Assembly (NCBI RefSeq): GCF_023111095.1
Contig: NZ_JALGYW010000014.1
Span: 62,001-126,000, forward strand
Direction of reading: 5' to 3'
Source of the DNA: Maribellus sp. YY47
GTDB lineage: Bacteria > Bacteroidota > Bacteroidia > Bacteroidales > Prolixibacteraceae
Length of the DNA: 64,000 nt
Part shown: piece by piece, positions 191 through 23,948 of the stretch
Position numbering within the stretch: the stretch's first letter is position 1
How the letters are laid out: each line of letters starts with the position of its first letter
The notes under the pieces: generated by a model
What the model was told of the DNA's origin: nothing
What the model saw: the letters and a program-made list of their open reading frames with translations, nothing else
The model's database searches: none
Program-made: the position numbers and the translations under genes

Positions 191-637
191 ATGGCAACAT
201 CATATCCAATTCCAAAGTTTCATTTTAAAGTTAGCTTTGGTGATACAGAATTTAATTGCACAGAGGTTTCCGGCCTCGATTTCGAAGCCGAGGTGATCGA
301 ATACCGTTCGGGCGCCGATGCTGAATACCACAAAACCAAACAGCCCGGTCTTTCCAAATACAGTAACATTACTTTAAAGCGGGGCACTTTTGTGGATAAA
401 GGGCGCGAGTTCTACGAGAAGTGGATTAAAACCGTCTATTTTCAGGAAAAGGGCGAGCAGTTCAGGGGTGATCTGGTGATCAGTCTTTTGAATGAGAGCC
501 ATGAACCGGTGGTGAGCTGGAAAGCGATTAACGCCTACATCACAAAAATTCAATCCACCGATTTAAAGGCTGACGGAAACGAAATTGCGATTGAAACAGC
601 TGAGTTTGTGCATGAAAAACTGACCATGATCGAATGA
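191..637 (+). CDS. eCIS inner tube protein 1 (gp19/Hcp-like fold)
   Basis: This 148-residue protein matches the conserved tail-tube family of eCIS particles (Afp1/Afp5, T4 gp19-like). Visible family marks are FHFKVSF near the start, a VSGLDFEAEVIEYRSG stretch, KYSNITLKRG around residue 60, and an IETAEFVHE C-terminus. Hexamers of such proteins stack into the rigid tube that is driven out when the sheath contracts, and cargo travels in the lumen. It begins 29 bases after the sheath stop and overlaps the next gene by four bases (ATGA), so translation is probably coupled. Full length for the family. It is probably the main (Afp1-like) tube subunit because it follows the sheath, but which of the two tube genes supplies the bulk of the tube is inference. 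Confidence 0.93.
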   Translation: MATSYPIPKFHFKVSFGDTEFNCTEVSGLDFEAEVIEYRSGADAEYHKTKQPGLSKYSNITLKRGTFVDKGREFYEKWIKTVYFQEKGEQFRGDLVISLLNESHEPVVSWKAINAYITKIQSTDLKADGNEIAIETAEFVHEKLTMIE

Positions 638-1074
638 CAGGCTATTATCCACCCATAGGATTTCATTTCAGCGTTGAGTTTCCGGAGATTTCTTCCAATG
701 GCAAAGATCAGCAGTTTCAGTCGGTTACCGGCTTATCGGTCGATATTGATACGGAAGAAGTTGTGGAAGGGGGCGAAAACCGGTTTAAACACAAAATTCC
801 GGTTCGTACCAAATATCCAAACCTGGTGTTAAAGCGGGGTTTGCTGGTCGATTCGGAGGTGATAAAGTGGTGCCGCGACGCTGTGGAGAACTTTCAGTTC
901 AAACCCACCGGGATCATTGTAAAACTGTTGAACGAGAAACACGAACCACTGGTTAGCTGGAGCATCGTTCATGCATATCCCGTGAAATGGAGTCTTGTTG
1001 ATCTGAATGCCGAAGAAAGCAAACTGGCAATTGAAACGCTGGAATTAACCTACAACTACTTTAAAGTGATTTAA
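634..1074 (+). CDS. eCIS tube initiator-type protein 2 (Afp5-like)
   Basis: A second, diverged tube protein of 146 residues. It keeps the same layout as its upstream neighbour: FHFSVEF near the start, a VTGLSVDIDTEEVVEGG segment, KYPNLVLKRGLLVD, and a C-terminal IETLELTYNYF. The start ATG overlaps the previous stop. In Afp, PVC and AlgoCIS a second tube paralogue forms the first ring that joins the tube to the spike and baseplate; its position just before the DUF5908 and LysM genes fits that role. The family assignment comes from the sequence; the adaptor-ring role is inferred from gene order. Confidence 0.9.
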   Translation: MTGYYPPIGFHFSVEFPEISSNGKDQQFQSVTGLSVDIDTEEVVEGGENRFKHKIPVRTKYPNLVLKRGLLVDSEVIKWCRDAVENFQFKPTGIIVKLLNEKHEPLVSWSIVHAYPVKWSLVDLNAEESKLAIETLELTYNYFKVI

Positions 1075-1957: not shown

Positions 1958-3706
1958 ATGCCTGAACAAAGAGTCATACCAACACAACGGTCTGCCGATC
2001 TGGTTACCTGGAAAATACTGATTGAAGGCGAGGAATTGTCTTCAACCTACCAGGTACTGAGTATTGCCGTTGAAAAGGAGATCAACCGTATTCCGTGGGC
2101 GAAGATCGTTTTGCTGGACGGTGACCCGTCAGCACAGGATTTTGCATTAAGCAATGAATCATTCTTTGTCCCGGGAAAAGAGATCGAAATAAAGGTGGGT
2201 TATCATTCCGATGAGGAAACGGTTTTTAAGGGTATGGTTATCCGTCATAATTTATCGATTAGGTCAGACAAGGCACAACTGGTGATCGAGTGCAGGGATA
2301 AAGCGGTGAAAATGACGATCGGCCGCAAAAGCAAATATTTCTACGAAAGTAAAGACAGCGATATTCTGGAAGAAATCATTAGCGCCCATAACCTGGAAGC
2401 AGATGTGGAAGCAACGTCGGTTGATTATCCTGAAATGGTGCAATACCGTGTCAGTGACTGGGATTTTATGATCGCACGTGCGCAGGCCAACAGCAAGGTT
2501 TGTGTCGTGGACGATGGAAAGGTCTCGGTGGTGACACCTGATTACAGTCAGGAAGAAAAACTAACGCTGGTTTACGGTGCTACCATCCTTCATTTTGACG
2601 CGGAAATTGATGCCCGGAACCAGTTTGGAAACATTACCTCCTTTGGTTGGGATGTGGCAAATCAGGATGTTTGGGAGCGGGAAGCCGCAGCATTGAATGT
2701 TCAGTTAAACGGAAATATTTCGGCCGATGAACTGGCATCGGTGATTGATTTGGAAAAACTGGAATTAAAAGATGGCAGCGGACTTAGCGATGCCGGGTTA
2801 CAGGCCTGGGCCGATGCCCGGAACCTGTTTAACCAGCTTTCGAAATGCCGGGGAAGTGTCCGTTTTCAGGGAATCGCTGATGTGAAACCGAATACAACCA
2901 TTGCTCTGGCAGGAGTAGGCGATCGCTTTAATGGGAAAACCTATGTGTCAGCCGTTCGTCATCACATGACCGAGGGAAACTGGACCGTTGATGCCCAGTT
3001 TGGTGTCGATTCAAAATGGTTTACCGATAAATCGGATATCAACGAGCTTCCGGCGTCGGGCTTGCTCGGAGCTGTGCATGGACTGCACATCGGAAAAGTT
3101 ACGCAACTGCAGGACGATCCGGAAGGAGAGTACCGGGTGTTAGTTCGAATGCCGCTGATCAACAACGACGAACAAGGTGTTTGGGCACGGGTGGCAACAC
3201 TCGATGCGGGCAATAACCGCGGCTCGTTTTTCAGACCTGAAATTGACGATGAGGTAATTATCGGTTTTCTGAATGGAAGTCCGAACGACCCTGTAATTCT
3301 CGGAATGCTAAACAGCAGTGCCAATCCTGCTCCGCTGGAGCCGGAAGATGCCAACAACGAAAAAGGTTTTGTGACGCGCAGTGAAATCCGCTTCATTTTT
3401 AATGACGACGATGTAAGCGTGACCATGGAAACACCCAACGGCAATAAAATGGTGATCAGTGATGCGGATGGCGGAATAAAACTGGAGGATGAAAACGGCA
3501 ACCTGATTCAGATGGATGCGAACGGAATTAAGATCGAAAGTGCGAAGGATTTGAATTGTAAATCTTCAGCAAATACGGTAATTGAAAGTGATGTAAATCT
3601 CGAACTATCGGCGGGTGCACAGTTTAAGGCCGAAGGTGGAGCGGGCAGTAGCCTGGAATCATCGGCTATTACAGAGATAAAAGGATCAATGGTAAAAATT
3701 AACTGA
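1958..3706 (+). CDS. VgrG-like spike protein (gp27-gp5 fusion, Afp8-like)
   Basis: This 582-residue protein forms the trimeric hub and needle under the tube. Residues ~1-370 resemble the gp27-like hub (FVPGKEIEIKVGYHSDEETVFKG, later VQYRVSDWDFMIARAQ). An OB-fold of gp5 type starts near residue 376 (HIGKVTQLQDDPEGEYRVLVRMP, with GSFFRPEIDDEVIIGFLNG and PVILGML). From ~residue 480 a repetitive, glycine- and aspartate-rich tail (for example GGIKLEDENGNLIQMDANG) matches the triple-stranded beta-helix needle. No extra lysozyme or toxin domain is visible, so it looks like a structural spike only. The next gene encodes the PAAR tip that would cap it, one base after the stop. Confidence 0.94.
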   Translation: MPEQRVIPTQRSADLVTWKILIEGEELSSTYQVLSIAVEKEINRIPWAKIVLLDGDPSAQDFALSNESFFVPGKEIEIKVGYHSDEETVFKGMVIRHNLSIRSDKAQLVIECRDKAVKMTIGRKSKYFYESKDSDILEEIISAHNLEADVEATSVDYPEMVQYRVSDWDFMIARAQANSKVCVVDDGKVSVVTPDYSQEEKLTLVYGATILHFDAEIDARNQFGNITSFGWDVANQDVWEREAAALNVQLNGNISADELASVIDLEKLELKDGSGLSDAGLQAWADARNLFNQLSKCRGSVRFQGIADVKPNTTIALAGVGDRFNGKTYVSAVRHHMTEGNWTVDAQFGVDSKWFTDKSDINELPASGLLGAVHGLHIGKVTQLQDDPEGEYRVLVRMPLINNDEQGVWARVATLDAGNNRGSFFRPEIDDEVIIGFLNGSPNDPVILGMLNSSANPAPLEPEDANNEKGFVTRSEIRFIFNDDDVSVTMETPNGNKMVISDADGGIKLEDENGNLIQMDANGIKIESAKDLNCKSSANTVIESDVNLELSAGAQFKAEGGAGSSLESSAITEIKGSMVKIN

Positions 3707-4000: not shown

Positions 4001-4411
4001 ATGGAAAAACAACACTCATTTTTAGGAACAGGATGGAGCTTCCCGCCTGAATTTCAAAAAGAAAACAAAGCAGTGAAAATGCTTCAGGACGAGGAAGACA
4101 TCAACAGTAGTCTGCACATTCTGTTGACGACCCGTTTGGGCGAGCGCGTTATGGTGCCTGATTACGGTTGTAACCTCGATGAGTTGCTGTTTAAACCATT
4201 GAACCTGACGGTGAAAACATACGTGTTCGATTTGATAAAGCGGGCGATTCTCTACCACGAACCACGAATCGATGTCAACAAGATTGCGATTGATCCGGTG
4301 AATGAGCTGGAAGGCCAGTTGCTGATCAACATCGATTACACGATCCGAACAACAAATTCAAGACGAAATATGGTTTTCCCATTTTACAAAACCGAGGGTA
4401 CCGAACTATAA
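4001..4411 (+). CDS. gp25-like baseplate wedge protein (Afp9-like)
   Basis: A 136-residue GPW/gp25-family protein. Visible marks are FLGTGWSFPPEF at the start, LHILLTTRLGERVMVPDYGC in the middle and a C-terminal INIDYTIRTTNSRRNMVFPFY. The EPR-type core motif of the family appears as HEPRIDV. In contractile systems gp25 joins the baseplate wedge to the first sheath ring and helps trigger contraction. Length is typical. It starts two bases after the PAAR stop. Confidence 0.94.
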   Translation: MEKQHSFLGTGWSFPPEFQKENKAVKMLQDEEDINSSLHILLTTRLGERVMVPDYGCNLDELLFKPLNLTVKTYVFDLIKRAILYHEPRIDVNKIAIDPVNELEGQLLINIDYTIRTTNSRRNMVFPFYKTEGTEL

Positions 4412-4422
4412 AAACACACTAA

Positions 4423-7400
4423 ATGGCAGGTTGCGGAAAAGACATATTGTTAACGCGGGAAGGAACAGAACAAACACAACGTTTCAGCGAAATACTCGAT
4501 CCTTCGTGGGTTAAACTCAATAATTTTGGTTTAAGTGAATGGATGAGGTTTGCCTGGAACTTTGCAGCTCATCTTCAGTATTACGGGGTGGATGACGACA
4601 AAGTGTCTTCCGGAAACTGGCAGGATTTCTTTTTCACGAAAGAGGAATTGGAGGCTTTCCTTACAAAGGTGAAAGAAGGACAGGAAATTACGCCTCACCT
4701 GGCTTTGTTTGTAACCTTTGTAAAGCTGTTGGAGGTTACACAAAAACATTTTAACAGCCTCACGCAAAGTCACCTCGACTTTTATTTCAACCGGGTACTG
4801 AAAATTGAAAAACAGGCCGCTGTTGGCGATAAGGTTCATATTCTTTTTGAACTGGCAAAAAACGCCGTGGATGAAAAGATTGCCTCAGAAACACAGCTGG
4901 ACGCCGGAAAAGATGCAACCGGGAAGAAGCTGATCTATCAAACAAAAGAAGAGCTGATTGCGAACCAAACCGTTGTAGCACAGCTGAAAAGTGTTTACAA
5001 CGATCATGACTTAAGTAAAATAAAAGCAGCGGAAGTGGCCAATTCTTATGACGGATTGGGGGAAGATTTTCCGAATAAAGAAGTCAAATGGTGGCCTTTT
5101 GGGTATTTCGAACCTGCTCCAAAAGACGGTGATCCCGATTTGCGAGAATATCCCGAATTGCCCGATGCAAAAGTTGGTTTTGCTGTTTCGGGCGAAATAC
5201 TCGAATTGCAGGAGGGCGAACGTGATGTATTGATACGATTGAAGTTCGACAGCAACCTCTCCGGAAGTATTTCCCGCGATGATCTGGAAGCCAACCTCGA
5301 GGTGTTTTGTACCGGAGAAAAAGGCTGGATCGGACCTTTGGAAATCCTGGCACAGTCAGGAGGAGAGGACGAAGATCCGGTATCATTTAGTTCAGGCGTA
5401 AAAAGCGGCGACCTGAAAACACTGAATATTTTGTTTCGGGTTCCGAAAGAGGAAAAAGCGGTGGTGAAATACGATGCAAAAGTACATGCAGAGCATTTCA
5501 ATGCCAATTTCCCGGTTTGCCGGGTACTTTTCAAAACGGCAGATCCGGATGCCCATCAGCTTTACCGCGAACTGATCGCCAAAGAACTTATTTCGGCGAG
5601 TATCAGTGTATACGTGAAGGGCGTCGAAAGCCTTTCATTATCCAACGATTTTGGAGACATTAATGCCGCCAAGCCTTTTTATCCTTTCACAACTCAACCT
5701 GTCAAAAAATCAAAGTTTAACATCAACTATCCCGAACTATTCAAAAAGAAATGGGGAGATCTGCATGTAAAAATCGACTGGAAAAATACACCGGATGCTT
5801 TTAAAGAATGGTATGCTGCCTATCGGAAGAGTTTCAAATTTCAGATGACCTCGCTCGATTACAGCAATCAGATTTTTAGCAAAGCTTACATCGATTCTCT
5901 GACAGCGTCTCCACCTGTCGGAATAGGTAAGGTAGTCGGAATGGCTAAATTCAATTTCAGCAACCTTATCATTTCGTCTGACGAAGATTTTACCGCTGCG
6001 GTGGAGATTTTTCAGAACGAAGACTGGGAATTTGTAGCCGATAAAAAGGAAATTCCACTGTATGATACAAAAGAAGATGACGGAGCTTTTTCGATGAATT
6101 TTGATGTTTCCAACCCGGAATCAGATGATGATAATACCGGACCAATTCGCTTGTCATTGATTCAGCCCTTTCTTCATGATATGTTCCCGCGACTGTATGC
6201 GGTGGCGATGAGCAGCGAAGATAAAAACATACTGATTCCGAATGAACCTTACACGCCTTTTGTTGAAAAAATAACGCTTAATTACACGGCTAAGGCCGAA
6301 CTGAAACCCAGCGGAGAAAGCTACGATATCGAAGAGTTTGACCTGTTTCACGAACATCCGTTTGGGCAGGCAAAAGAATCGATTATCGGCAAGTTATCCA
6401 ATAAAATAGTGGCAAAACAGGAAGCCACTAAATTGCGGGCGGTTCCGAATTATTGCAAAGGCGGTGAATTGTACATTGGCCTGGAAAATGTGAAAAAACA
6501 GCAGATTGTTTCGTTGCTGATCCAGGTGCTGGAGGGAAGTGAAAACCCGGAGGCAGAATCTTTTACAGGTAAGCAAAAAGTGGAATGGTGGATGTTGTGT
6601 AACAACGACTGGAAACAGTTGGATACCACCGCCATTATTGCCAACGAAACGGATAATTTGCTGAAATCGGGGATTTTGAAATTTACGGTTCCAAAAGAGG
6701 CAACCAACGACAATACTTTGCTTCCGGCTGGCTACATGTGGCTGAAAGCCCGGATTCATAAAAAATACAATGCGGTTTCGAAAGCCATCGGAATTCATGC
6801 GCAGGCTGTGGTTGCTGAGTTTTCAGATAAGGGAAACGATCTTTCGCACCTGAAAAACGGTTTGCCGGGAGATACTATTTCGAAAATGATTTTCAGAATT
6901 CCGAAGGTAAAAAGCTTGTCGCAGCCTTACAGTTCGTTTGGAGGCAAACCCGAAGAAAGTGATGCTGATTACTACCGCCGCGTAAGCGAACGACTGCGGC
7001 ATAAAAACAGGGCCATTTCGATGTGGGATTACGAACACCTGGTACTTCAGAATTTTCCCGAAATTCATAAAGTAAAATGCCTGAATCACACCTGTTCCAA
7101 AATTGTAAACAAGCAGCGAAAAACTCGTTACCTGGCGCCGGGAAGTGTAGTCGTGGTGGTGGTTCCTGACATCGTCAATAAAAATGTGTTTGACATTTAT
7201 CAGCCGCGCGTGAGCAAAGCAACTTTGAATAATATTGAAAACTACCTTAAAAAGCTCAACTCTCCTTTGATCAATACCGTGGTCATTAATCCCGAATACG
7301 AGGAAGTAAAAGTGGCGTTAAAGGTTCAGTTTAATACCGGTTTTGATAATGTCTATTCCAAAAAAATACTGAAAGAAGATTTAACCAAACTGTTGTCGCC

Positions 7401-7671
7401 GTGGGCGTTTGATACTTCCGCCGAAATTCGTTTTGGTTTGTCGCTGCACAAAAGCGTGGTGATCAATTATGTCGAAAAACTGCCTTATGTGGATTTTGTA
7501 AGCGATGTAAAACTCTTTCAGAAAATTGCCGGAGCAGAGGAAGAAGTAAAAGTAGCTGTTCCGTCGAGCCCCGAAACCATATTGGTGTCCTCAAAAGCAC
7601 ATGTTGTGGATGACCTGATAAACGACTGTTCCAAAAACGAAATTGAACCAGCAGAAAAATGTCAGAGCTAA
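4423..7671 (+). CDS. Large baseplate wedge protein, gp6/baseplate J type (Afp11-like)
   Basis: A 1082-residue protein in the position of Afp11. The C-terminal third carries the baseplate-J-like signature from about residue 840: FGGKPEESDADYYRRVSERL, then RAISMWDYEHLVLQNFP and PGSVVVVVVPD. The N-terminal two thirds are alpha-rich and less conserved, as in other Bacteroidota eCIS. Family members dimerise to build the inner wedge ring around the spike hub. The 3' end overlaps the next reading frame by 13 bases, which suggests coupled synthesis of the two wedge partners. Assignment to the family is strong; the fine role is from homology and order. Confidence 0.88.
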   Translation: MAGCGKDILLTREGTEQTQRFSEILDPSWVKLNNFGLSEWMRFAWNFAAHLQYYGVDDDKVSSGNWQDFFFTKEELEAFLTKVKEGQEITPHLALFVTFVKLLEVTQKHFNSLTQSHLDFYFNRVLKIEKQAAVGDKVHILFELAKNAVDEKIASETQLDAGKDATGKKLIYQTKEELIANQTVVAQLKSVYNDHDLSKIKAAEVANSYDGLGEDFPNKEVKWWPFGYFEPAPKDGDPDLREYPELPDAKVGFAVSGEILELQEGERDVLIRLKFDSNLSGSISRDDLEANLEVFCTGEKGWIGPLEILAQSGGEDEDPVSFSSGVKSGDLKTLNILFRVPKEEKAVVKYDAKVHAEHFNANFPVCRVLFKTADPDAHQLYRELIAKELISASISVYVKGVESLSLSNDFGDINAAKPFYPFTTQPVKKSKFNINYPELFKKKWGDLHVKIDWKNTPDAFKEWYAAYRKSFKFQMTSLDYSNQIFSKAYIDSLTASPPVGIGKVVGMAKFNFSNLIISSDEDFTAAVEIFQNEDWEFVADKKEIPLYDTKEDDGAFSMNFDVSNPESDDDNTGPIRLSLIQPFLHDMFPRLYAVAMSSEDKNILIPNEPYTPFVEKITLNYTAKAELKPSGESYDIEEFDLFHEHPFGQAKESIIGKLSNKIVAKQEATKLRAVPNYCKGGELYIGLENVKKQQIVSLLIQVLEGSENPEAESFTGKQKVEWWMLCNNDWKQLDTTAIIANETDNLLKSGILKFTVPKEATNDNTLLPAGYMWLKARIHKKYNAVSKAIGIHAQAVVAEFSDKGNDLSHLKNGLPGDTISKMIFRIPKVKSLSQPYSSFGGKPEESDADYYRRVSERLRHKNRAISMWDYEHLVLQNFPEIHKVKCLNHTCSKIVNKQRKTRYLAPGSVVVVVVPDIVNKNVFDIYQPRVSKATLNNIENYLKKLNSPLINTVVINPEYEEVKVALKVQFNTGFDNVYSKKILKEDLTKLLSPWAFDTSAEIRFGLSLHKSVVINYVEKLPYVDFVSDVKLFQKIAGAEEEVKVAVPSSPETILVSSKAHVVDDLINDCSKNEIEPAEKCQS

Positions 7672-14648: not shown

Positions 14649-16199
14649 TTGGCAACATTTGGCAACCATATTATAAACAGGGTTTTGGTGGACGTAAATC
14701 TGCGGAACGAAGAGACAGCCCATCAGATCAAAGATAACATCAGTGGATTCTTGCAAAACGAGGTATTTCCTGAATTGGAAAGCCTGTTGGATGAATTGAA
14801 TGCAGGAAATCAGATCGTTCGATACAAGCAACTTGTTTTTGACCTGAAAATCGAAAATTGGGAGCAGCGTCATCGGGTCAAAAAAGAGCTGGTGCAGAAC
14901 CTTCGGCAAAATATTGTCGAGTCGTTGGGTGTAAAGGTCCCTGCAAACGGGGAACGGTGGCGACTGGATGGAACCGGAAAAATTGCGAGCACCGGTTTGC
15001 ACGGTGAATTTGTAAGTCCTGAACAGAAAAATCGCAAAACGCTCCTGTTTTTTCTGGAGCATGGCTATTTACCCTGGTACGGGAAACGACCGAATTTGGA
15101 GGAGCTGGTGGAGGAAAAGGCATGGGAGAAACTGGTAAGTGACAATTCTTTTTCTGTTCAGCTGATTTCACTTTTTATGAATAAGGACAGTGCATTAAAA
15201 CGCTTCGTTTTTCAGTTTTCGCACTCGCAGGTTCTCTCTGTTATAGATGGCGTTAATCCTGTTTTTACTAATCGTCCCGGGTTTGAGGTGTTTCTGCAAA
15301 CACTTTCCACAGCAAGTCAAAGATTACTCATCGAGTATTTACTGCGGATTTCGGTGTCCTCCGGAAAAGAAATTTTCGGAAGTAGATTTTTGCAGCTGTT
15401 GCGTACTTTTTTGAAAGAGGGAATAATTTCTGTTTCAGAAAATTCGGATGATATAAATAAAGAATTTCATAAAAAAATCGGGAAATACTTGAAGGACAAT
15501 GTTGTTCGTCGGCATTTTCAAATTGGGAAGGAAGAACTTAAGGAAACTGTGATGTTTGAAGGGCATCACCCGTTCGAACACACAAAAAGGGGGTCTACTC
15601 AAGGCAAGGGGTCAATCGTTGAAAATGACCCAACCGTTATTTCAAAAGGATCAGTGCATACTGAAAATGAAAAGGAACCGCTGTTTTTCGAAAATGACGC
15701 TGGTGAAATCACCGTTCGAAATGCAGGCCAGGTTCTTTTTCATCCTTTTTTGCTTTACTTTTTTGAACACTTTGAGTGGCTAAACGAAGAAAACAAAATC
15801 AAAGAGGAATACCGGATGCTGGCTTTGCAGGCGGTGCATTTTTGTGCGACCGGCGCAGAAACTTTTTGGGAAGAAGAAATGACACTTGAGAAGTTTCTTT
15901 GCGGAGTTTCGCTGGAAACACCCGTTCCTGCTTATAGTTTGCTAACGCCGGAAATTAAAAGCGAAGCCAACGAGATGTTGCAACAGGTAGTTGACAACTG
16001 GAAAGCACTAAAAAATACTTCGGTGGAGGGAATGCGCGAGATGTTTTTTCAGCGGGATGGGAAACTGGTTCGGACGGATCAGCATTTCAAACTGATTGTG
16101 GAACGCAAAGCACAGGATATTTTGCTGGACAAGTTGCCCTGGGGCGTGTCCATCATTAAATTACCGTGGAGAGAGCAATTGTTATTTGTTGAATGGTAA
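14649..16199 (+). CDS. Contractile injection system tape-measure protein (Afp14-like), TTG start
   Basis: A 516-residue member of the CIS tape-measure family. The diagnostic stretches are NHIINRVLVDVNL at the start, RYKQLVFDLKIEN near residue 60, NAGQVLFHPFLLYFF around residue 357, and an AVHFCATGAETFWEEEM segment. It begins at TTG, one base after the previous stop; no ATG in frame would keep the conserved N-terminus, so the TTG is preferred. The protein is thought to set tube length by stretching along the lumen during assembly. A variable, low-conservation stretch between ~residues 290 and 345, just before the C-terminal domain, may hold length information. Confidence 0.88.
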   Translation: MATFGNHIINRVLVDVNLRNEETAHQIKDNISGFLQNEVFPELESLLDELNAGNQIVRYKQLVFDLKIENWEQRHRVKKELVQNLRQNIVESLGVKVPANGERWRLDGTGKIASTGLHGEFVSPEQKNRKTLLFFLEHGYLPWYGKRPNLEELVEEKAWEKLVSDNSFSVQLISLFMNKDSALKRFVFQFSHSQVLSVIDGVNPVFTNRPGFEVFLQTLSTASQRLLIEYLLRISVSSGKEIFGSRFLQLLRTFLKEGIISVSENSDDINKEFHKKIGKYLKDNVVRRHFQIGKEELKETVMFEGHHPFEHTKRGSTQGKGSIVENDPTVISKGSVHTENEKEPLFFENDAGEITVRNAGQVLFHPFLLYFFEHFEWLNEENKIKEEYRMLALQAVHFCATGAETFWEEEMTLEKFLCGVSLETPVPAYSLLTPEIKSEANEMLQQVVDNWKALKNTSVEGMREMFFQRDGKLVRTDQHFKLIVERKAQDILLDKLPWGVSIIKLPWREQLLFVEW

Positions 16200-16202
16200 G
16201 CG

Positions 16203-18107
16203 ATGAGACGAGGAAACAGAATTTACAGATCGAATTACAGTGGCCGAAGAAATCATTCGCCGCTGTTTTCACAATCCGGGGAGTCATCTTTTTTTCCGGC
16301 ACAGGCCAAACTTACGGTAGGCCAGCCAGGAGATCGTTTTGAACAGGAAGCGGATCGTGCGGCAGATGCGGTCGTTAATCAAAATGTACCGGATAGCGCG
16401 TTAAACGGATTGGATAGCAATGAATTCAGGAATACCGGAGAAAGTATTTCAGAAGGAATAACACCGCTTGTTCAGCAGGAAATGGAAGAAGTTGGCATTG
16501 CACAACGCCAGCCAAAGGAAGAAGAGGAGGAAATCGCACAACCAAAACTGCAGGAAGAGGAGGAGCCGGTTCAAGCGCAGGCAGAAGAAGAGGAGGAACC
16601 GGTTCAGGCCAAAGAGGAAGGCGAAGAATTGCAGATGCAGGAGGAAGAAGAGGCAATACAAGGTAAGGCTGAGGAAGAAGAGGAGGAGTTGCAAATGCAA
16701 GCGGAGGAAGAGGAAGAAGAAATAATGCCAAAAGCCGAGGGAAGTGCTCAACCTGCATCAAGTGTGGAAAGCACTTTGGCTTCGAGTCCGGGAAGCGGAT
16801 CAAAAATGGACAACAACATTCGTTCGGAAATGGAAAGCGGCTTTGGAGCCGATTTTAGCCAGGTTCGGATTCACACCGGGCACGATGCGGTAAACATGAA
16901 CCGCCAAATGGGAGCACAGGCTTTTGCACATGGTAACGATATTTATTTTAACGAAGGAAAATACGATCCAAATTCGGAAAAAGGAAAGCACTTATTGGCG
17001 CACGAACTTACGCATACCATTCAGCAAAAAGGATTTGTTAAGGCCGATGTGCAGACCACGATGGACGATAACCGGGACCTTGTTTCGGATCGGTTTAGTG
17101 GTAATTTACGCTTGGAAGCCTGTTTGGATGGAGAACGAACGCTTGGCTATGGAAGCACTGGCCGGCCGGTTTCGTTGATACAACAGGCTTTGGTGGATGC
17201 CGGATTTCCATTGCCAGTGTATGGCGTTGACGGGATTTTTAAAAATGAAACCAAAGCAGCTGTAGAAAGTTTTCAGCGTTCGTCTTCTTTACCGGTAACG
17301 GGAATAATTGATGCCCGGACCATGGCCTCGCTCGACGGATTATTCTCGTGGGGCGCGCCAACTTTGCCCACCGGAACTCCGGCCACAGAGGCTCCTTCCA
17401 TCACTTCTTCAACGATCAGCATTGCACCCGACGGAACAGCCGATGAACGTACCTTGGTGGGAGTGGGGGAATTTGTTCGCTTTACCGGAAATACGGAAGG
17501 CACCTGGACTGTCACCGGAGGAAGGATTATCGGATTAAATACGGGACAGAACATGGTGTGGGAAGCTCCGCCTGTTCCGATGGTCAGCATCATTACACTT
17601 ACCAATCAGGCAGGTTCAGCGTCTATGATCATGTCAACCAAAGCACCCGACTCAATTACCTTAGAACGGTCGGCAATTCTACCCATACCCGCCGGAACGC
17701 TTGGCGCAGCAATGGAAGCTGCTATTACCGTTCATCCCTTGAACGTAAACTTTGGCCGCACACAGTGGTTCGAGGAGCCCGGTCCGGCAACAAGTGTAAG
17801 CGGCTATTTTAACCAGTTTTCAGCGGCAGATCTTCACCACGACCCAAACCCGGATTATCTGCCATTTGATGATATGAATACCGGGCTAACCGATGAGGCC
17901 GCCTGGCGGGGAGGGAATCCTCCGTTCAGCAGAGGCTATCACGAATGGGTGATTCCGAACAAATACAAGATTGACGGAGAATCGGATGCCCAGGGAAGGG
18001 TATTTACCAATGTTACACAGTCCTTCTTCGTAACCCCGGGAGGCAGTTTTATGGTAGCCAAAGCAGGAGCATTTATTTTCCGGACGCTAAACAACTTTAC
18101 GATATAA
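16203..18107 (+). CDS. DUF4157 (eCIS core) protein with acidic repeats and peptidoglycan-binding domain; cargo candidate
   Basis: A 634-residue protein. Its N-terminus has the motif AKLTVGQPGDRFEQEADRAAD, known from eCIS-associated DUF4157 proteins. Residues ~105-174 form seven acidic units of Glu runs spaced by short Gln/Lys/Met linkers. The DUF4157 fold spans ~212-275 (SGFGADFSQVRIHTG) and ends in HELTH (267-271), a zincin-like HExxH motif. A peptidoglycan-binding-1-type domain follows at ~313-380 (VDGIFKNETKAAVESFQ). The C-terminal ~250 residues contain a beta module (DERTLVGVGEFVRFTG) seen by me in other DUF4157 proteins, with no toxin motif I can name. It starts three bases after the tape-measure stop. 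DUF4157 proteins are linked to eCIS loading or release of cargo; whether this one is cargo, a maturation protease or a particle component is open. Confidence 0.82.
   Translation: MRRGNRIYRSNYSGRRNHSPLFSQSGESSFFPAQAKLTVGQPGDRFEQEADRAADAVVNQNVPDSALNGLDSNEFRNTGESISEGITPLVQQEMEEVGIAQRQPKEEEEEIAQPKLQEEEEPVQAQAEEEEEPVQAKEEGEELQMQEEEEAIQGKAEEEEEELQMQAEEEEEEIMPKAEGSAQPASSVESTLASSPGSGSKMDNNIRSEMESGFGADFSQVRIHTGHDAVNMNRQMGAQAFAHGNDIYFNEGKYDPNSEKGKHLLAHELTHTIQQKGFVKADVQTTMDDNRDLVSDRFSGNLRLEACLDGERTLGYGSTGRPVSLIQQALVDAGFPLPVYGVDGIFKNETKAAVESFQRSSSLPVTGIIDARTMASLDGLFSWGAPTLPTGTPATEAPSITSSTISIAPDGTADERTLVGVGEFVRFTGNTEGTWTVTGGRIIGLNTGQNMVWEAPPVPMVSIITLTNQAGSASMIMSTKAPDSITLERSAILPIPAGTLGAAMEAAITVHPLNVNFGRTQWFEEPGPATSVSGYFNQFSAADLHHDPNPDYLPFDDMNTGLTDEAAWRGGNPPFSRGYHEWVIPNKYKIDGESDAQGRVFTNVTQSFFVTPGGSFMVAKAGAFIFRTLNNFTI
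16515..16723 (+). repeat. Low-complexity acidic repeat tract (GAA/GAG-rich) inside the first DUF4157 gene
   Basis: About 210 bases of purine-rich sequence encode seven imperfect units of four to six Glu residues followed by a short linker such as PVQAQA, LQMQA or IAQPK. On DNA level the units are related but not identical, so the tract is old or under selection for charge rather than a fresh tandem duplication. A weaker acidic segment is present at the same place in the second DUF4157 protein (around 18415-18645). Such tracts can change length by slippage. Confidence 0.85.
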
Positions 18108-18145: not shown

Positions 18146-21100
18146 ATGTACGAATCAAAATCGGCACAAAAAAGTAGTACTCACTCTTCCGCTGCAAACC
18201 GGAACGAGCCTTTTATCCAGCCCAGTTTAAAGGTTGGACAACCGGGCGACAAATACGAGGTGGAAGCTGATCAGATGGCCGATCAGATTGTACAGCAAAG
18301 CAGGGCACAAAATACCTCCCAAGACACATTTTTTTCTGTATCCGATAGCGTAAATGCCAAGTCGTTGAATTCCTCCGGGGGATTTTTTGGTGCGGGAACA
18401 AGTGCTGAAAAATCGGAAGAAGAAGAGGTGCAAATGAAAGCGGAGGACAAGCAAAACGATTTGCTGGTTCAGAACTCAGTTGACAACGATGTTGTTTCAT
18501 CCATTCCCGCTTTACAGGCCAACTCAATCGGTTCGGCAGAAGAAGAACAAGTAAAAGAACCGGAAGAGGAAGAGGTTCTTCAAACTGAATCAATCGTTCA
18601 AAAAAGTACCGATATCCCTGAAGAAGAACCGGAATTACAAAACAGGTCAGATTCTCCCAACAATGCAAGTTCGGTAGAGTCATCTCTTGAGAGCTCTAAA
18701 GGCGGTGGAAGTCCAATGAGCGGCGATACAAAAAGTGAGATGGAATCGGGTTTCGGGGCGGATTTTGGCAGTGTGAGGATTCACACCGGAAGCGATGCGG
18801 TGCAAATGAGTGAAAACCTCAATGCACAGGCCTTTACACACGGCAACGATATTTATTTCAACGACGGAAACTATAATCCTAGAACTGAATCGGGAAAACA
18901 TCTGCTGGCGCACGAGCTGACGCACACGGTTCAGCAGGGAGCTTCAGTCCAGCGTAAAATGATCCAGAAGCAGGAAAATGATACAACAGCTGAAAACCCG
19001 GAAGATATACTAAAGAAATTTTATCTCCCGGCAGTAAAAGCCCGACATTTATCGCTTTATCAAACCTGGGCATCACAGGGAAAATTGAAGCGTTTTCAGG
19101 GCTACAGCCGGGGAAGACCAAATCAAATAAGTGTTTGGAAAAATCATTTTTGGGATAAAATGCAAAATACCGAAAGACTCGGGCTTCACGAAGAATTTTC
19201 GGGCGTTAAAAAGATAAAAACTCCGGGCGATAAAGAAATACGGGGACGGCGGGCAACTTTGTTAAAAAAGCTCACCATCGCCAATTGGGACAAACGTGGC
19301 CGCGTGCTAGATAATACCATGGAAGTCGATCACATTATTGAACTTCAAACCGGAGGCTGGCCCAATTCTACCACGCCCAACGAAATTGAAAACATGGAGC
19401 TGCTCGACAAAAGCTCCAATGCCACTGCAGGGGCCAAAACCAAATCGAACATTGTGGCTATTGTCCGAAATTATCTGGAAGCTTCCGGCGAATCGAATAC
19501 TCAATCCGATGCAGAAACCTATATGGCGGCCAATACCATTAATTTTGAACAGGTGGAGCTTGGTCAAGGTGATTTTGCAGGACAAAGAGGGGAGAGTCAG
19601 TATTGGACCCGGGAAGAAATTGAACAGGGCTTGCATTTGAACGATTTGGAGGATCTGGGAAATATCGGCGAACCGGGATCGCCCACTGAATTTGCCTTGA
19701 TGACACCCGACGACGGTTACTTAATGGAATTATTTCCGCATGAAGAAAATAGTTTGTCGATTCAACTGGGACCCGATAATGCCAAAAGCAAAGCGGTGGC
19801 CGGTATGAAAATCTCCAACATTTCACTCAATTCCGGTTATGATTCAGTTGCTGCCGATCTGCCCATGGGGCAAATTACCGCAAACTGGGATCTTCCATCC
19901 GATTTTAATGCCCCGGAAGGACCGTTTACAATTCCTGTAAAAAAATCGATTAGCCAGTATGCCGGAAAAGTGGGAGACGTACCATCAATGGGGATGGATT
20001 TTGAGTATCTGAGCCCCATCGAATTGTCCGGTGAATTTGGAATTAACGAGGAGGGTTTTTTTGCTGAAGGAAGACTGACTCCTTCTGTAGAATTTTTGCG
20101 GGGAGCCGCATTGGTGGTTGGAGTGCGGGGTACAGAGGCCTATTTCGCAGCCGAATATTCTCCTTCTGATCTGAATATACCGGTGCCGGGATTAAGCATT
20201 GATAGTTCCAGTTTATCGGTTGGTTACAGTACCGCTGACGGATTTGGAGTAGATGGAAGTATTGAATTTCAGATGGACCCGATCGGGAGCGGTGCCATTG
20301 AAGCCGGTTTTAACCAGGAGAATGGCTTGAGACTGCGGGGCGATATTACCTTCGACGAACGACTTTTTGGGCGGAGTGAGGCGAGTGCCAGAATGGCATA
20401 TGAAAATGGTTTGTGGAGCATTGGCGGTACTTTAACGATTCCCCGAAACAAAGTACCGGGAGTAAAAACAGCCACCATAAGTGTTGATTTTTCGGAAGAA
20501 TCGGGGTTATCTGCCACCGGTGATGCCGAACTTGATATTCCGGGAATTGAACAGGGAACTTTGTCGATTAACTATGGTGATGAAGGCTTTTCGATTTCCG
20601 GCGATTTTAACCTGAGTTCTGAAATCCCCGGCATACAGGGCGGTACAGTGTCTGCACGCGTTGGCAAACAGGAAGGTGCAGAAGGTTATGACATTATGAT
20701 TTCCGGCACAGCTCAGCCGGATATTCCCGGAATCGACTCAACGTTGACCGTAAGTTACGAGAATGGTGCACTTACCATTGAAGGACAGGCAGCCTACGAA
20801 CGTGGAATGCTCAGCGGAAATATACGGGTGGGAGCTACCAACCGGACCATTGGTGAAGACGGTCAGCCAACCGGAGAGCCGGATGATACCATGCGGGTTT
20901 ACGGTGGCGGCGATCTCACGCTGCAACTTACGCCATGGCTGGAAGCAACTGCCGGTGTTCAGTTTTTGCCCAACGGCGAGATGGAAGTAACCGGCCGAAT
21001 TGGTTTGCCCAGTGCGGTGGATGTTTTTGACCGGCGCGAATTCCGCAGAAGCCTGTTTACAGTGCCAACGGTTGAGATTCCGATTTTTGCCATTCCACTC

Positions 21101-21718
21101 GGACCCCGCAGTATTGGTTTGGTAGCACAAATAAGTGGCGGACTCGATTTCTCCGCCGGTTTTGGCCCGGGGCAATTGCGAGAAGTGTATGCCGAGGTTA
21201 CCTACAATCCGGATCGCGAAGATGAGACCGAAATTCATGGTCACGGAGAGTTTGCCATTCCTGCGGATGCCGGACTTACACTCCGCGGCGATCTTGGACT
21301 AGGAGTGAGCATTGCCATCGCCAGTTTGTCGGGTGGCATCGAACTGGCCGGAACACTTGGTCTGGAAGGCGAAGCATCGGCCATGGTTGATTTATCGTGG
21401 AGTCCGCAAACAGGAGTGGTACTCGATGCGGAAGGACGAATCACGGTAAATCCAAAGTTTGTGTTCGACGTCAATGCCTTTGCCCGCGCCAGCCTTGGGA
21501 TTGGCTGGTTCTCTATTTCCGAAACCTGGCGATACAACCTTGCCTCGTTTAGCTGGGGACCCGATATTCAGTTTGGACTGGTGTTCCCGGTTCATTACCA
21601 GGAAGATCAGCCTTTTGATATTTCATTCGACGATATTGAAGTGATCTATCCCGACCTGGATGTGATTGACATGGCGAAAGGACTGGCACGCGACGTAAAA
21701 GATGATATGTTTGATTAA
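18146..21718 (+). CDS. DUF4157 cargo candidate with HNH-nuclease-like motif and long beta-repeat C-terminal region
   Basis: A 1190-residue protein sharing its N-terminal plan with the gene upstream: LKVGQPGDKYEVEADQMAD near residue 30, a sparse acidic linker, and DUF4157 at ~200-265 ending in HELTH (256-260). Residues ~385-435 carry an HNH-like nuclease pattern: D395-H396, Gly403-Gly404, N416, L419, N425 and K431, in the spacing EVDHIIEL-x-TGG...N..LL...N...K. From ~residue 600 to the end the protein is glycine-rich beta repeats; (I/V)PG(I/V/L) turns recur at about 680, 770, 798, 827 and 860, and the tail includes a basic-poor, amphipathic segment. There is no signal peptide. The layout suggests a nuclease effector delivered by the injection system; the beta tail may mediate loading or membrane insertion (inference). 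Confidence 0.8.
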   Translation: MYESKSAQKSSTHSSAANRNEPFIQPSLKVGQPGDKYEVEADQMADQIVQQSRAQNTSQDTFFSVSDSVNAKSLNSSGGFFGAGTSAEKSEEEEVQMKAEDKQNDLLVQNSVDNDVVSSIPALQANSIGSAEEEQVKEPEEEEVLQTESIVQKSTDIPEEEPELQNRSDSPNNASSVESSLESSKGGGSPMSGDTKSEMESGFGADFGSVRIHTGSDAVQMSENLNAQAFTHGNDIYFNDGNYNPRTESGKHLLAHELTHTVQQGASVQRKMIQKQENDTTAENPEDILKKFYLPAVKARHLSLYQTWASQGKLKRFQGYSRGRPNQISVWKNHFWDKMQNTERLGLHEEFSGVKKIKTPGDKEIRGRRATLLKKLTIANWDKRGRVLDNTMEVDHIIELQTGGWPNSTTPNEIENMELLDKSSNATAGAKTKSNIVAIVRNYLEASGESNTQSDAETYMAANTINFEQVELGQGDFAGQRGESQYWTREEIEQGLHLNDLEDLGNIGEPGSPTEFALMTPDDGYLMELFPHEENSLSIQLGPDNAKSKAVAGMKISNISLNSGYDSVAADLPMGQITANWDLPSDFNAPEGPFTIPVKKSISQYAGKVGDVPSMGMDFEYLSPIELSGEFGINEEGFFAEGRLTPSVEFLRGAALVVGVRGTEAYFAAEYSPSDLNIPVPGLSIDSSSLSVGYSTADGFGVDGSIEFQMDPIGSGAIEAGFNQENGLRLRGDITFDERLFGRSEASARMAYENGLWSIGGTLTIPRNKVPGVKTATISVDFSEESGLSATGDAELDIPGIEQGTLSINYGDEGFSISGDFNLSSEIPGIQGGTVSARVGKQEGAEGYDIMISGTAQPDIPGIDSTLTVSYENGALTIEGQAAYERGMLSGNIRVGATNRTIGEDGQPTGEPDDTMRVYGGGDLTLQLTPWLEATAGVQFLPNGEMEVTGRIGLPSAVDVFDRREFRRSLFTVPTVEIPIFAIPLGPRSIGLVAQISGGLDFSAGFGPGQLREVYAEVTYNPDREDETEIHGHGEFAIPADAGLTLRGDLGLGVSIAIASLSGGIELAGTLGLEGEASAMVDLSWSPQTGVVLDAEGRITVNPKFVFDVNAFARASLGIGWFSISETWRYNLASFSWGPDIQFGLVFPVHYQEDQPFDISFDDIEVIYPDLDVIDMAKGLARDVKDDMFD

Positions 21719-21728
21719 TGATTTAGAT

Positions 21729-22592
21729 ATGGACAAACTTATTGAATTAAATAACCAGGGAGTTTCACACTTTCTAAACCAGCGGTTTAAAGAAGCGGAA
21801 GATTCATATAACAAAGTGCTGGAAATAGATGAACACAATGCCACAGCATTGAATAACCTGGGATTGTTGTATCATCAGCAAAAACAATACAAGGATGCCG
21901 AAAAAAGTTTTGAAGAGGCGATTGAGGCAAATCCCAGATCTTCCTATTTTCTCAATCTTGCCAATGTGCAGGTATTTTTGAAGAAATGGGCGGTGGCTGA
22001 AAAAAATTATATAAAAGCCTGCGAGCTGGATGCCAAAAACGTGAAAGCCAAAATTAGTATGGCCCGTTTTTATGAAGCGCAACGATTGTTTTCGAAAGCT
22101 GCTGATGTTTGGTTCAGCCTGATCATGCAAACCAACGAAACCCAATACAAGATAAACCTGGCCGGAAACAAAATGGCAATGGGGCAGTTTGAGGAAGCAT
22201 TGGGCATTCTTTCAAATTTAACAGACCAGAAAGAAGCTGCCACGGTTTATCATCAGATCGGGATTTGCGAATTGAACCTGAAGAATTACGGCCTGGCGCT
22301 GCTGGCTTTTCGCAACAGCCTTGGGCTCTCTCCTGATAATCTGGCTACGCGTCATTACCTGGCGATAACCATGCTGGCGGCCGGAGAGCATGAAAAGGCT
22401 TTGGAAGAATTCGACTTTCTTCTGAAAATGAACCCCGAAAGTATAAAGTTTCGTTTGGACAAGGCTTCGGTGTTGTTGTCGCTTCAGCAAACCGGAGAAG
22501 CTAAGGAATTGATCGATGAGGTTTTACAACGGGATCCCGGGAATAATAAGGCGGCCAAATATCTTACTTTGATAAAGGGTGAGGAAAAATAG
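21729..22592 (+). CDS. TPR-repeat protein of the eCIS operon
   Basis: An all-helical protein of 287 residues built of tetratricopeptide repeats, for example ALNNLGLLYHQQKQYKDAEKS near residue 42, YFLNLANVQVFLKKWAVAEKN and a C-terminal IKFRLDKASVLLSLQQTGEA. An earlier in-frame ATG at 21702 would overlap the preceding gene by 17 bases; the ATG at 21729 is preferred because the TPR pattern starts right after it. It lies between the cargo candidates and the AAA+ ATPase with three bases to the latter. TPR proteins are common scaffolds; here a chaperone for cargo loading or assembly is a reasonable but unproven guess. Confidence 0.8.
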   Translation: MDKLIELNNQGVSHFLNQRFKEAEDSYNKVLEIDEHNATALNNLGLLYHQQKQYKDAEKSFEEAIEANPRSSYFLNLANVQVFLKKWAVAEKNYIKACELDAKNVKAKISMARFYEAQRLFSKAADVWFSLIMQTNETQYKINLAGNKMAMGQFEEALGILSNLTDQKEAATVYHQIGICELNLKNYGLALLAFRNSLGLSPDNLATRHYLAITMLAAGEHEKALEEFDFLLKMNPESIKFRLDKASVLLSLQQTGEAKELIDEVLQRDPGNNKAAKYLTLIKGEEK

Positions 22593-22595
22593 AGT

Positions 22596-23948
22596 ATGCA
22601 TGTATCGGCAACAAATAAAATGGAGAGTATTTATCAGCAAGTGTTTGCTTTTGTCCGGCTGGGAATTCAGCACCGGCTAAACCAGGATTTCAAAAAAGAT
22701 GCTAATTCAAGTTCTGTAATCCCGGATTTTTCGTTTGCTACGGATACAACTTTAGGGAAGTTCATCGCTGAAAATAAGTTAAGCAGCGAAGAAATTTTTT
22801 GTCTGTGTATGGCGCTCATGCCACACTTATCGCCCGGATTTATTTCGGGAGTAGTAGGGGCATATCTTCCCAACGGTGGCGAATTTCCGGAGTTTGGCGG
22901 AGTGAAAGGTAAAAACCACCGGGGAATCATTCCAACCGGTGAAACGGTTCTTTACCTGCTGGCCGGAAAAGACCTGGCAAAAAGAGCAGCAATGATCCGG
23001 ATGTTTGAAGAGGATCACCTGTTTTCGCGGAAGAACGTCCTTTTTCTGGATCAGGTTCCGTTGGGAGAGCCCAAAATGAGTGGCCGCCTGATTATGGATG
23101 ACGAATACGTCGATCTTTTTATTGCAGGCAAAATTTCGAAACCAAAACTGAGCAGCGATTTTCCGGCACAGTTGATTACTACAGATCTGGAATGGAACGA
23201 CTTGGTTTTGCATGAAAAAACAATTGAGGATATTCGAGAGATCGAAACTTGGCTAAAATTCAATGCCAGGTTGATGCAAGACTGGAAACTTCACGGAAAG
23301 GTAAAGCCCGGATACCGGGTTTTGTTTCACGGGCCACCAGGAACCGGAAAAACAATGACAGCTTGCCTGCTCGGAAAATACACGGGTCGGGATGTTTTCA
23401 GGATAGACTTGTCAATGGTGGTGTCGAAGTACATTGGCGAAACCGAAAAGAATCTTTCGAAGTTGTTTGACAAGGCAGCCAACAAAGACTGGATTTTGTT
23501 TTTTGATGAGGCCGATTCGATTTTCGGGAAACGCACTAACGTTAGGGATGCGCACGACAAATATGCGAACCAGGAGGTTTCTTATTTGCTTCAGCGAATC
23601 GAATCGCACGAGGGGCTGGTTATTTTGGCTACCAACATGAAAGCCAATATTGACCCGTCGTTTACCCGCCGTTTTAATACGTTTGTGGAATTCGATAATC
23701 CCGGAGTGGATGAGCGCCGCCGTTTGTGGGAGGTTTATCTGCCCGATTCAAAAAAACTGGATAAGGAAATTCAGACAAAGGAACTGGCACGTCTTTACGA
23801 GTTATCAGGGGCCAATATCGTAAATGTAATTCAGTATGCCGGATTGCAGACATTGCAGAAACAAAACAAACAACTTCAGATGGAAGATCTGCTGAAAGGC
23901 GTTGAAAAAGAGTATCTGAAAGAAGGTAAAATGCTTCGAAGAAATTGA
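22596..23948 (+). CDS. AAA+ ATPase of the eCIS (Afp15-like)
   Basis: A 450-residue ATPase. Walker A is GPPGTGKT at residues 246-253, Walker B ends in D304-E305 (WILFFDEADSIFG), sensor-type Asn lies in VILATNMKAN and an arginine finger region in SFTRRFNTFVEF. The first ~200 residues form the non-catalytic N-terminal domain seen in eCIS ATPases. Afp15/Pvc15-type ATPases are needed for assembly or cargo loading rather than contraction. It is the last gene of the locus; the strand continues with unrelated genes after about 100 bases, and no clear terminator is seen after the stop. A second possible ATG lies eight codons in. Confidence 0.93.
   Translation: MHVSATNKMESIYQQVFAFVRLGIQHRLNQDFKKDANSSSVIPDFSFATDTTLGKFIAENKLSSEEIFCLCMALMPHLSPGFISGVVGAYLPNGGEFPEFGGVKGKNHRGIIPTGETVLYLLAGKDLAKRAAMIRMFEEDHLFSRKNVLFLDQVPLGEPKMSGRLIMDDEYVDLFIAGKISKPKLSSDFPAQLITTDLEWNDLVLHEKTIEDIREIETWLKFNARLMQDWKLHGKVKPGYRVLFHGPPGTGKTMTACLLGKYTGRDVFRIDLSMVVSKYIGETEKNLSKLFDKAANKDWILFFDEADSIFGKRTNVRDAHDKYANQEVSYLLQRIESHEGLVILATNMKANIDPSFTRRFNTFVEFDNPGVDERRRLWEVYLPDSKKLDKEIQTKELARLYELSGANIVNVIQYAGLQTLQKQNKQLQMEDLLKGVEKEYLKEGKMLRRN

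What the first reader, a model, noticed from the sequence alone, without database searches (positions are those of the whole stretch)
18146..21718. DUF4157 protein with HNH-like nuclease motif and long beta-repeat tail
The order DUF4157 - HNH-like - ~600 residues of IPG-type beta repeats is one I do not know from described toxins, where the toxic domain usually lies at the C-terminus. Here the presumed nuclease is central and the tail is repetitive (turns at ~680, 770, 798, 827, 860). The tail could be a pore, a lipid-channel-like element or a tube-filling spacer. The HNH pattern (Asp395-His396, Asn416, Asn425, Lys431) is direct; function is inference. No immunity gene is obvious next to it.
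Basis: partly seen in the sequence, partly recalled or inferred. Interest (0 to 1): 0.75.

Follow-up and report, generated by a model that had tools for sequence, protein, structure and literature searches.

The report
Injection-machine nuclease with swappable middle
This is a probable cargo protein of a syringe-like bacterial particle, a DNA- or RNA-cutting enzyme whose cutting part sits unusually in an exchangeable middle section ahead of a conserved beta-strand tail, with a linked partner gene right behind it; it suggests a way such cargoes are built and varied.

Summary
[quoted passage not shown] It has the eCIS_core/DUF4157 domain, a central HNH-superfamily motif of H-N-N type (H396, N416, N425 invariant in 10 relatives; K431 is not) and a ~550-residue beta-patterned tail. 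The same tail is also joined to Endonuclea_NS_2-like nucleases, before or after it. Two new points. (1) The middle is an exchange cassette: against same-genus Maribellus sediminis, residues 275-780 are 29% identical but the flanks 78% and 89%; Echinicola, from another order, matches the middle at 61%. (2) A TPR gene directly follows the effector in 8 of 8 canonical Bacteroidota loci and was not found in 26 comparison loci. Best reading: a particle-loaded nuclease effector, its tail serving delivery or packing, the TPR protein a cytosolic chaperone or, less likely, an immunity protein. Activity, loading, fold and tail function are untested; the HNN structure model failed, the tail model is only partly confident, and no PDB fold search could be run. 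New variant of a known kind.

The parts
18146..21718 (+). effector ORF, 1190 aa: DUF4157 - HNN - beta tail
18146..18700 (+). residues 1-185, acidic, low-aromatic N-terminal region, possibly the loading signal (inference)
   Evidence: composition only, (D+E 0.19, aromatic 0.04)
18713..18943 (+). eCIS_core/DUF4157 domain, residues 190-266, with HELTH (HExxH) at 256-260
   Evidence: PF13699 E 7.2e-31; motif position
18968..20485 (+). exchange cassette, residues ~275-780 (HNN domain, middle region, first part of tail)
   Evidence: 29% to L008 (142 of 482) but 61% to L007 (308 of 501), Fisher p 3.8e-24
19226..19525 (+). HNN nuclease-like domain, residues ~361-460; H396 19331-19333, N416 19391-19393, N425 19418-19420
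   Evidence: invariant in 10 relatives; profile links to HNH proteins
20183..20734 (+). stretch with the five PG turns, residues 680-863
20513..21715 (+). conserved C-terminal beta tail, residues 790-1190
   Evidence: 89% to L008 and 78% to L007; tail profile; beta model
21729..22592 (+). TPR protein, linked partner (ORF listed from 21702; homologues suggest the start at 21729, 10 bp after the effector stop)
22596..23948 (+). AAA ATPase of the eCIS
   Evidence: PF00004 E 5.9e-28
16203..18107 (+). second DUF4157 protein, with PG_binding_1; probable second cargo
14649..16199 (+). CIS tape measure protein
   Evidence: PF19268 E 5.1e-118
191..1074 (+). two gp19-like tube proteins (191-637, 634-1074)
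   Evidence: PF06841
1237..1956 (+). CIS tube protein
   Evidence: PF19266 E 7.2e-53
1958..3706 (+). spike/hub protein (Phage_base_V)
4001..4411 (+). gp25-like baseplate protein
4423..7671 (+). Baseplate J-like protein

Best explanation
A cargo of the neighbouring eCIS particle. Shown by sequence: DUF4157 domain, central HNN motif of the HNH (beta-beta-alpha metal) superfamily, conserved beta-patterned tail, exchangeable middle, linked TPR gene. Inferred: the N-terminal part and DUF4157 mark it for loading; the HNN domain cuts nucleic acid in the target through a metal ion held by H396 and the asparagines; the amphipathic beta tail keeps the cargo packable or helps it leave the tube or cross a membrane, a role comparable to the membrane-associated part of the Streptomyces nuclease effector Tme; the TPR protein, with no hydrophobic N-terminus, holds the effector in the producer's cytosol until loading. 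Recombination between the conserved ends replaces the nuclease while keeping the delivery parts.
For: Locus: ten CIS component genes by Pfam. H, N, N invariant in 10 of 10 aligned members; Pfam HNH matched by 6 of 10 members, best E 5.8e-4; the domain profile found 4 proteins outside its own members in 296 genomes, 3 of them lying on Pfam HNH domains over cut-off. Tail shared by 17 distinct proteins, 16 with an HNN or NS_2-like signature. Mosaic. TPR: 8 of 8 against 0 of 26, and tblastn with the window TPR alone finds the 7 other loci. Literature: DUF4157 cargo fills the AlgoCIS lumen (PMC8894135) and a DUF4157 nuclease effector acts in Streptomyces davawensis (PMC11126660); passages only.
Against: No activity, loading or particle data. 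HNN model mean pLDDT 35.8. PDB sequence hits of the HNN profile are not significant (best E 0.21; 5 of 7 are HNH nucleases). Pfam HNH is under cut-off for the window protein. Pfam finds no HNH in the diverged L044 protein or in the L104 fragment. The TPR gene is absent from two HNN + tail loci (L044, L022). The 8 TPR loci are not independent (three from one family, two from one genus).
Confidence: 0.6

Rival explanations
1. The TPR protein is the immunity protein of the HNN nuclease, not a chaperone.
For: Directly behind the effector in 8 of 8 canonical loci and cytosolic by appearance; not found in the four NS_2-type tail loci examined (L042, L043, L046, L021).
Against: It does not follow the nuclease when the cassette is exchanged: WIN-L008 TPR 51% with HNN 35%, WIN-L007 TPR 37% with HNN 60%; L039-L041 TPR 71% with HNN 37%, L040-L041 TPR 58% with HNN 64%. 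Spearman over 28 non-independent pairs: TPR with HNN 0.39, with the N-terminal region 0.73, with tail 0.59-0.67; but also only 0.35 with AAA, so this is weak. HNN + tail loci L044 and L022 lack it.
Confidence: 0.25
2. The tail is the main active part: an amphipathic beta structure that inserts into the target membrane as a pore or barrel, with the nuclease as passenger.
For: Strong beta amphipathicity (mean moment 1.33 against 0.80 +/- 0.05 in shuffled profiles); all-beta model with pLDDT 70-78 around residues 703-923; weak OMP_b-brl and Porin_3 similarities, both under cut-off.
Against: Every soluble beta sheet is amphipathic too; no PDB fold search ran; the viral library gave no match at E <= 1e-3; 16 of 17 tail proteins keep a nuclease signature.
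Confidence: 0.2
3. The HNN domain is degenerate and the protein is a structural filler of the tube.
For: Pfam HNH under cut-off in the window; L044 has a diverged motif and no Pfam HNH hit.
Against: H, N, N kept in 10 of 10 members at 21-61% identity to the window domain.
Confidence: 0.1
4. The mosaic reflects uneven evolutionary rates, not exchange.
For: Toxin regions often evolve fast; only a few genomes compared.
Against: Relative order reverses: L007 is nearer in the middle (61% against 29%) while L008 is nearer in the tail (89% against 78%, p 8.5e-5), AAA (72 against 56) and TPR. A second case, narrower, in L039/L040/L041.
Confidence: 0.1

Closest known systems
Tme of Streptomyces davawensis (PMC11126660; passages seen)
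   Same: DUF4157 protein of a contractile injection system with a metal-dependent nuclease domain; nuclease activity and His-dependent toxicity shown there
   Different: nuclease is C-terminal and EndA-like; middle is tape-measure-like with transmembrane and coiled-coil segments; here the nuclease is central, HNN type, and followed by a beta tail
Cgo1 and Cgo2 of Algoriphagus machipongonensis AlgoCIS (PMC8894135; passages seen)
   Same: two DUF4157 proteins per locus with disordered N-terminus, shown to fill the tube lumen; the window also has two DUF4157 genes
   Different: C-terminal domains differ from each other; Cgo1 is metalloprotease-like; I did not compare sequences
eCIS-associated toxins with DUF4157 (PMC8213781, PMC11297309; passages seen)
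   Same: DUF4157, location beside eCIS genes, variable toxin domain
   Different: described order has the toxin at the C-terminus, sometimes after a long linker; here it is central and the conserved part is the C-terminus
HNH nucleases of H-N-N type such as the Cas9 HNH domain (Cas9 residue roles recalled)
   Same: DH...N-x8-N motif; Cas9 HNH chains are among the non-significant PDB hits
   Different: no significant whole-domain similarity; different protein context

Membership tests
eCIS effector with DUF4157 | eCIS_core/DUF4157 domain | tested here: met
   PF13699 E 7.2e-31
eCIS effector with DUF4157 | encoded in an eCIS operon | tested here: met
   ten CIS component genes by Pfam, from Pvc16_N and sheath upstream of the window to AAA
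eCIS effector with DUF4157 | N-terminal eCIS loading signal | tested here: inconclusive
   acidic, low-aromatic N-terminus by composition only; no predictor run
eCIS effector with DUF4157 | toxin domain at the C-terminus | tested here: not met
   HNN motif at 395-425 of 1190
eCIS effector with DUF4157 | loaded into particles, toxic | not testable with these tools
   needs experiment
HNH superfamily nuclease | conserved metal-site His and Asn at HNH spacing | tested here: met
   H396, N416, N425 invariant in 10 of 10
HNH superfamily nuclease | Pfam HNH over curated cut-off | tested here: not met
   window domain 13.5 of 21.4 bits; 6 of 10 members match, best E 5.8e-4
HNH superfamily nuclease | link by profile to accepted HNH proteins | tested here: met
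   3 of 4 new proteins found by profile A6 lie on Pfam HNH domains over cut-off
HNH superfamily nuclease | beta-beta-alpha metal finger fold | tested here: inconclusive
   model mean pLDDT 35.8
HNH superfamily nuclease | nuclease activity | not testable with these tools
   needs experiment
TamB/AsmA-like lipid channel | profile match to the family | tested here: not met
   tail against Pfam at E <= 10 listed only DUF4402 and OMP_b-brl, both under cut-off
TamB/AsmA-like lipid channel | beta-taco or solenoid fold | tested here: inconclusive
   all-beta model, pLDDT 70-78 only around 703-923, under 50 beyond ~947; no PDB fold search ran
toxin-immunity pair | linked gene that neutralises the toxin | tested here: inconclusive
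   linkage of TPR met; neutralisation not testable; identity pattern speaks against

The most novel reading that the evidence does not exclude
The beta tail defines a two-slot carrier for injected nucleases: unrelated beta-beta-alpha-metal nucleases (HNN or NS_2-like) are placed either between DUF4157 and the tail or behind it, exchanged as cassettes by recombination between conserved ends, and the tail, kept soluble by a dedicated TPR chaperone, carries the nuclease out of the tube and across the target membrane.
Probability: 0.3. Interest if true: 0.8.

Novelty: new variant of a known kind. Interest (0 to 1): 0.62.

Why it matters
How eCIS cargoes are recognised, packed and moved across the target membrane is open, and published passages leave both the role of DUF4157 and the long linkers unexplained. 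A tail conserved while the nuclease beside it is exchanged, plus a linked TPR gene, gives concrete parts to test for loading and delivery, and a candidate answer to why most eCIS toxins seem to lack immunity genes.

Tried and rejected
Acidic tail as DNA mimic or built-in inhibitor: net charge -49 in the window but -53 to +6 over 13 tails, so not conserved. K431 as part of the motif: not conserved. A SUKH-like immunity gene behind the L043 effector, suspected by eye: no Pfam match at E <= 0.01. Phage or viral origin of the tail or the HNN domain: no relative in viral contigs or, for the tail, phages. HNN domain on plasmids: none with the window domain or L013; with L022 only its own record. Tail sequence in PDB: none of use; HNN: (one irrelevant hit). 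More plasmid tail queries returned the same four or three records. Tail as the long linker of other DUF4157 proteins: 19 core proteins over 700 aa without the tail gave no hit better than E 2. Rows dropped before counts: L005, L006 (98-99% to the window), L012 (same translation as L011), two further Cereibacter plasmids, and weak hits L025-L027 (E 1e-6 to 3.8e-4; no eCIS genes found near two of the three; L026 not examined).

Full report
What is there. The ORF at 18146-21718 encodes 1190 aa without internal stop. The window lies at G000:C6:62001-126000; proteins 98-99% identical to residues 269-1190 occur in Maribellus sp. CM-23 and M. luteus, so the genome is Maribellus-like (Bacteroidota, Marinilabiliales). 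The gene sits among ten CIS component genes recognised by Pfam: Pvc16_N and sheath just upstream of the window, two gp19 tube proteins, CIS_tube, spike, gp25, Baseplate_J, tape measure and AAA. A second DUF4157 protein (16203-18107) lies just before it.

Domains. eCIS_core/DUF4157 is at 190-266 (E 7.2e-31). For the nuclease-like domain, the Pfam HNH match of the window protein alone is weak (E 0.082, under cut-off), so I used relatives. In an alignment of 10 members, 21-61% identical to the window domain, the invariant columns are G367, H396, Q401, N416, N425 and G429; K431 is not among them. Six of 10 members match Pfam HNH, best E 5.8e-4; a PHROGs HNH family is matched by the window (0.024), L013 (0.0015) and L022 (1.5e-4). 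The domain profile, searched in 296 genomes, hit 8: four are its own members; of the other four, three lie on Pfam HNH domains over cut-off (a GmrSD-type protein, a small HNH protein and a methyltransferase-HNH fusion) and one, L104, is the C-terminal end of an eCIS_core protein in which Pfam finds no family. PDB hits are not significant (best E 0.21), though 5 of 7 are Cas9 or Cas8f-fusion HNH nucleases aligned on the motif. The N-x8-N spacing resembles the HNN class of Cas9 (recalled). The structure model failed to inform (mean pLDDT 35.8, three sequences).

The tail. It is amphipathic in a beta rhythm (1.33 against 0.80 +/- 0.05), and the model of residues 544-1190 is all beta apart from short helices, with pLDDT 70-78 around 703-923 but below 50 for the last ~240 residues (mean 52.3, four sequences). 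The viral structure library gave nothing at E <= 1e-3; the PDB library could not be searched. Tail relatives: 2 of 295 genomes of the order (query residues 269-1190), 12 of 395 of the phylum, 5 of 395 of the class, three of them weak, 7 of 81 of one family, 4 loci in genome contigs, 4 of 72,556 plasmid records, none in phages or viral contigs. These counts include the window's own genome, and genomes overlap between calls. A control with the four-sequence profile gave 40-1093 bits for 14 tail proteins (four of them in the profile), at most 6.6 bits for the same proteins reversed, and nothing better than E 2 for 19 long DUF4157 proteins without tail.

Architectures. Of 17 distinct tail proteins, 10 are DUF4157 - HNN - tail (window, L004, L007, L008, L010, L011, L013, L014, L022 on a Streptomyces plasmid, and the diverged L044); one has an Endonuclea_NS_2 domain in the middle (L015, over cut-off); five have an NS_2-like signature behind the tail (L016 over cut-off, L017 and L018 by motif, L020 and L021 under cut-off); one (L019) ends before that point. 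L016 and L021 show no eCIS_core domain. NS_2-like motifs also occur in 4 of 20 control loci without the tail (L082, L083, L092, L094), so that nuclease type does not need it.

Exchange of the middle. Against M. sediminis (L008) the window protein is 78% identical in DUF4157 (68 of 87), 29% in residues 275-780 (142 of 482) and 89% in 790-1190 (356 of 401). Against Echinicola shivajiensis (L007; Cytophagales) the figures are 70% (60 of 86), 61% (308 of 501) and 78% (314 of 400). The difference in the middle has Fisher p 3.8e-24, and the tail differs the other way (p 8.5e-5). A second, narrower case: L041 shares the region before and at the HNN domain with L040 (74% and 64%) rather than L039 (30% and 37%), while tails are 75-90% for all three pairs in segments 641-1190.

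The TPR gene. It starts close behind the effector: the likely starts lie 9-20 bp after the stop in six loci, L045 has ATGs at -14, +1 and +19, and the start in L041 is unclear. It was found in 8 of 8 Bacteroidota loci of the canonical type (window, L007, L008, L038, L039, L040, L041, L045) and in 0 of 26 comparison loci: six other tail loci (L044, L022, L042, L043, L046, L021) and 20 DUF4157 loci that I picked from the listing, leaving out known tail genomes. The model was built from the 8; with the window TPR alone, tblastn finds the 7 others and, among the 20 controls, only a distant opposite-strand match in L092 (E 1.4e-7). Two controls (L080, L081) showed only the DUF4157 protein. In L038 and L045 the AAA gene precedes the effector, elsewhere it follows the TPR gene, so effector and TPR keep together. 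TPR identity does not follow the exchanged nuclease, which favours a chaperone or adaptor over a nuclease-specific immunity protein; the correlations are weak and the pairs not independent.

Mechanism and literature. In passages I saw, AlgoCIS DUF4157 cargoes fill the tube lumen (PMC8894135), Tme of S. davawensis is a DUF4157 nuclease effector with membrane-associated parts (PMC11126660), and toxins in DUF4157 proteins are described as C-terminal, with most eCIS toxins lacking visible immunity genes (PMC8213781). The MACs nuclease Pne1 may sit outside the tube (PMC6748791). Searches for this order, for HNH with DUF4157 and for TPR with eCIS or DUF4157 listed no paper describing it; in PMC8651086 HNH and DUF4157 occur in separate passages. 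The library lacks most subscription journals. My reading of tail and TPR is inference.

Noticed in passing
16203-18107: Second DUF4157 protein with a peptidoglycan-binding domain; counterparts in L007 and L008.
   Followed up: partly
L022 (Streptomyces sp. NBC_00299 plasmid): The DUF4157 - HNN - tail effector lies in a CIS cluster on a linear plasmid typed as mobilizable.
   Followed up: partly
L104 (G430:C90): A related HNN-like motif at the C-terminus of another eCIS_core protein, after a helical linker and without the tail.
   Followed up: partly
L007:9638-10480: A muramidase with peptidoglycan-binding domain between the TPR and AAA genes in Echinicola.
   Followed up: no
L044:7249-11136: Diverged HNN motif (DIEH) with tail, plus an extra ~130-residue C-terminal stretch and no TPR gene.
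   Followed up: partly
L016, L019, L021: Tail proteins in which no eCIS_core domain was seen (L016, L021 by Pfam; L019 by motif only); the L019 frame ends before the expected nuclease.
   Followed up: no
10424-14647: Large protein (1407 aa) with PKD domains in the eCIS locus, possibly a fibre.
   Followed up: no
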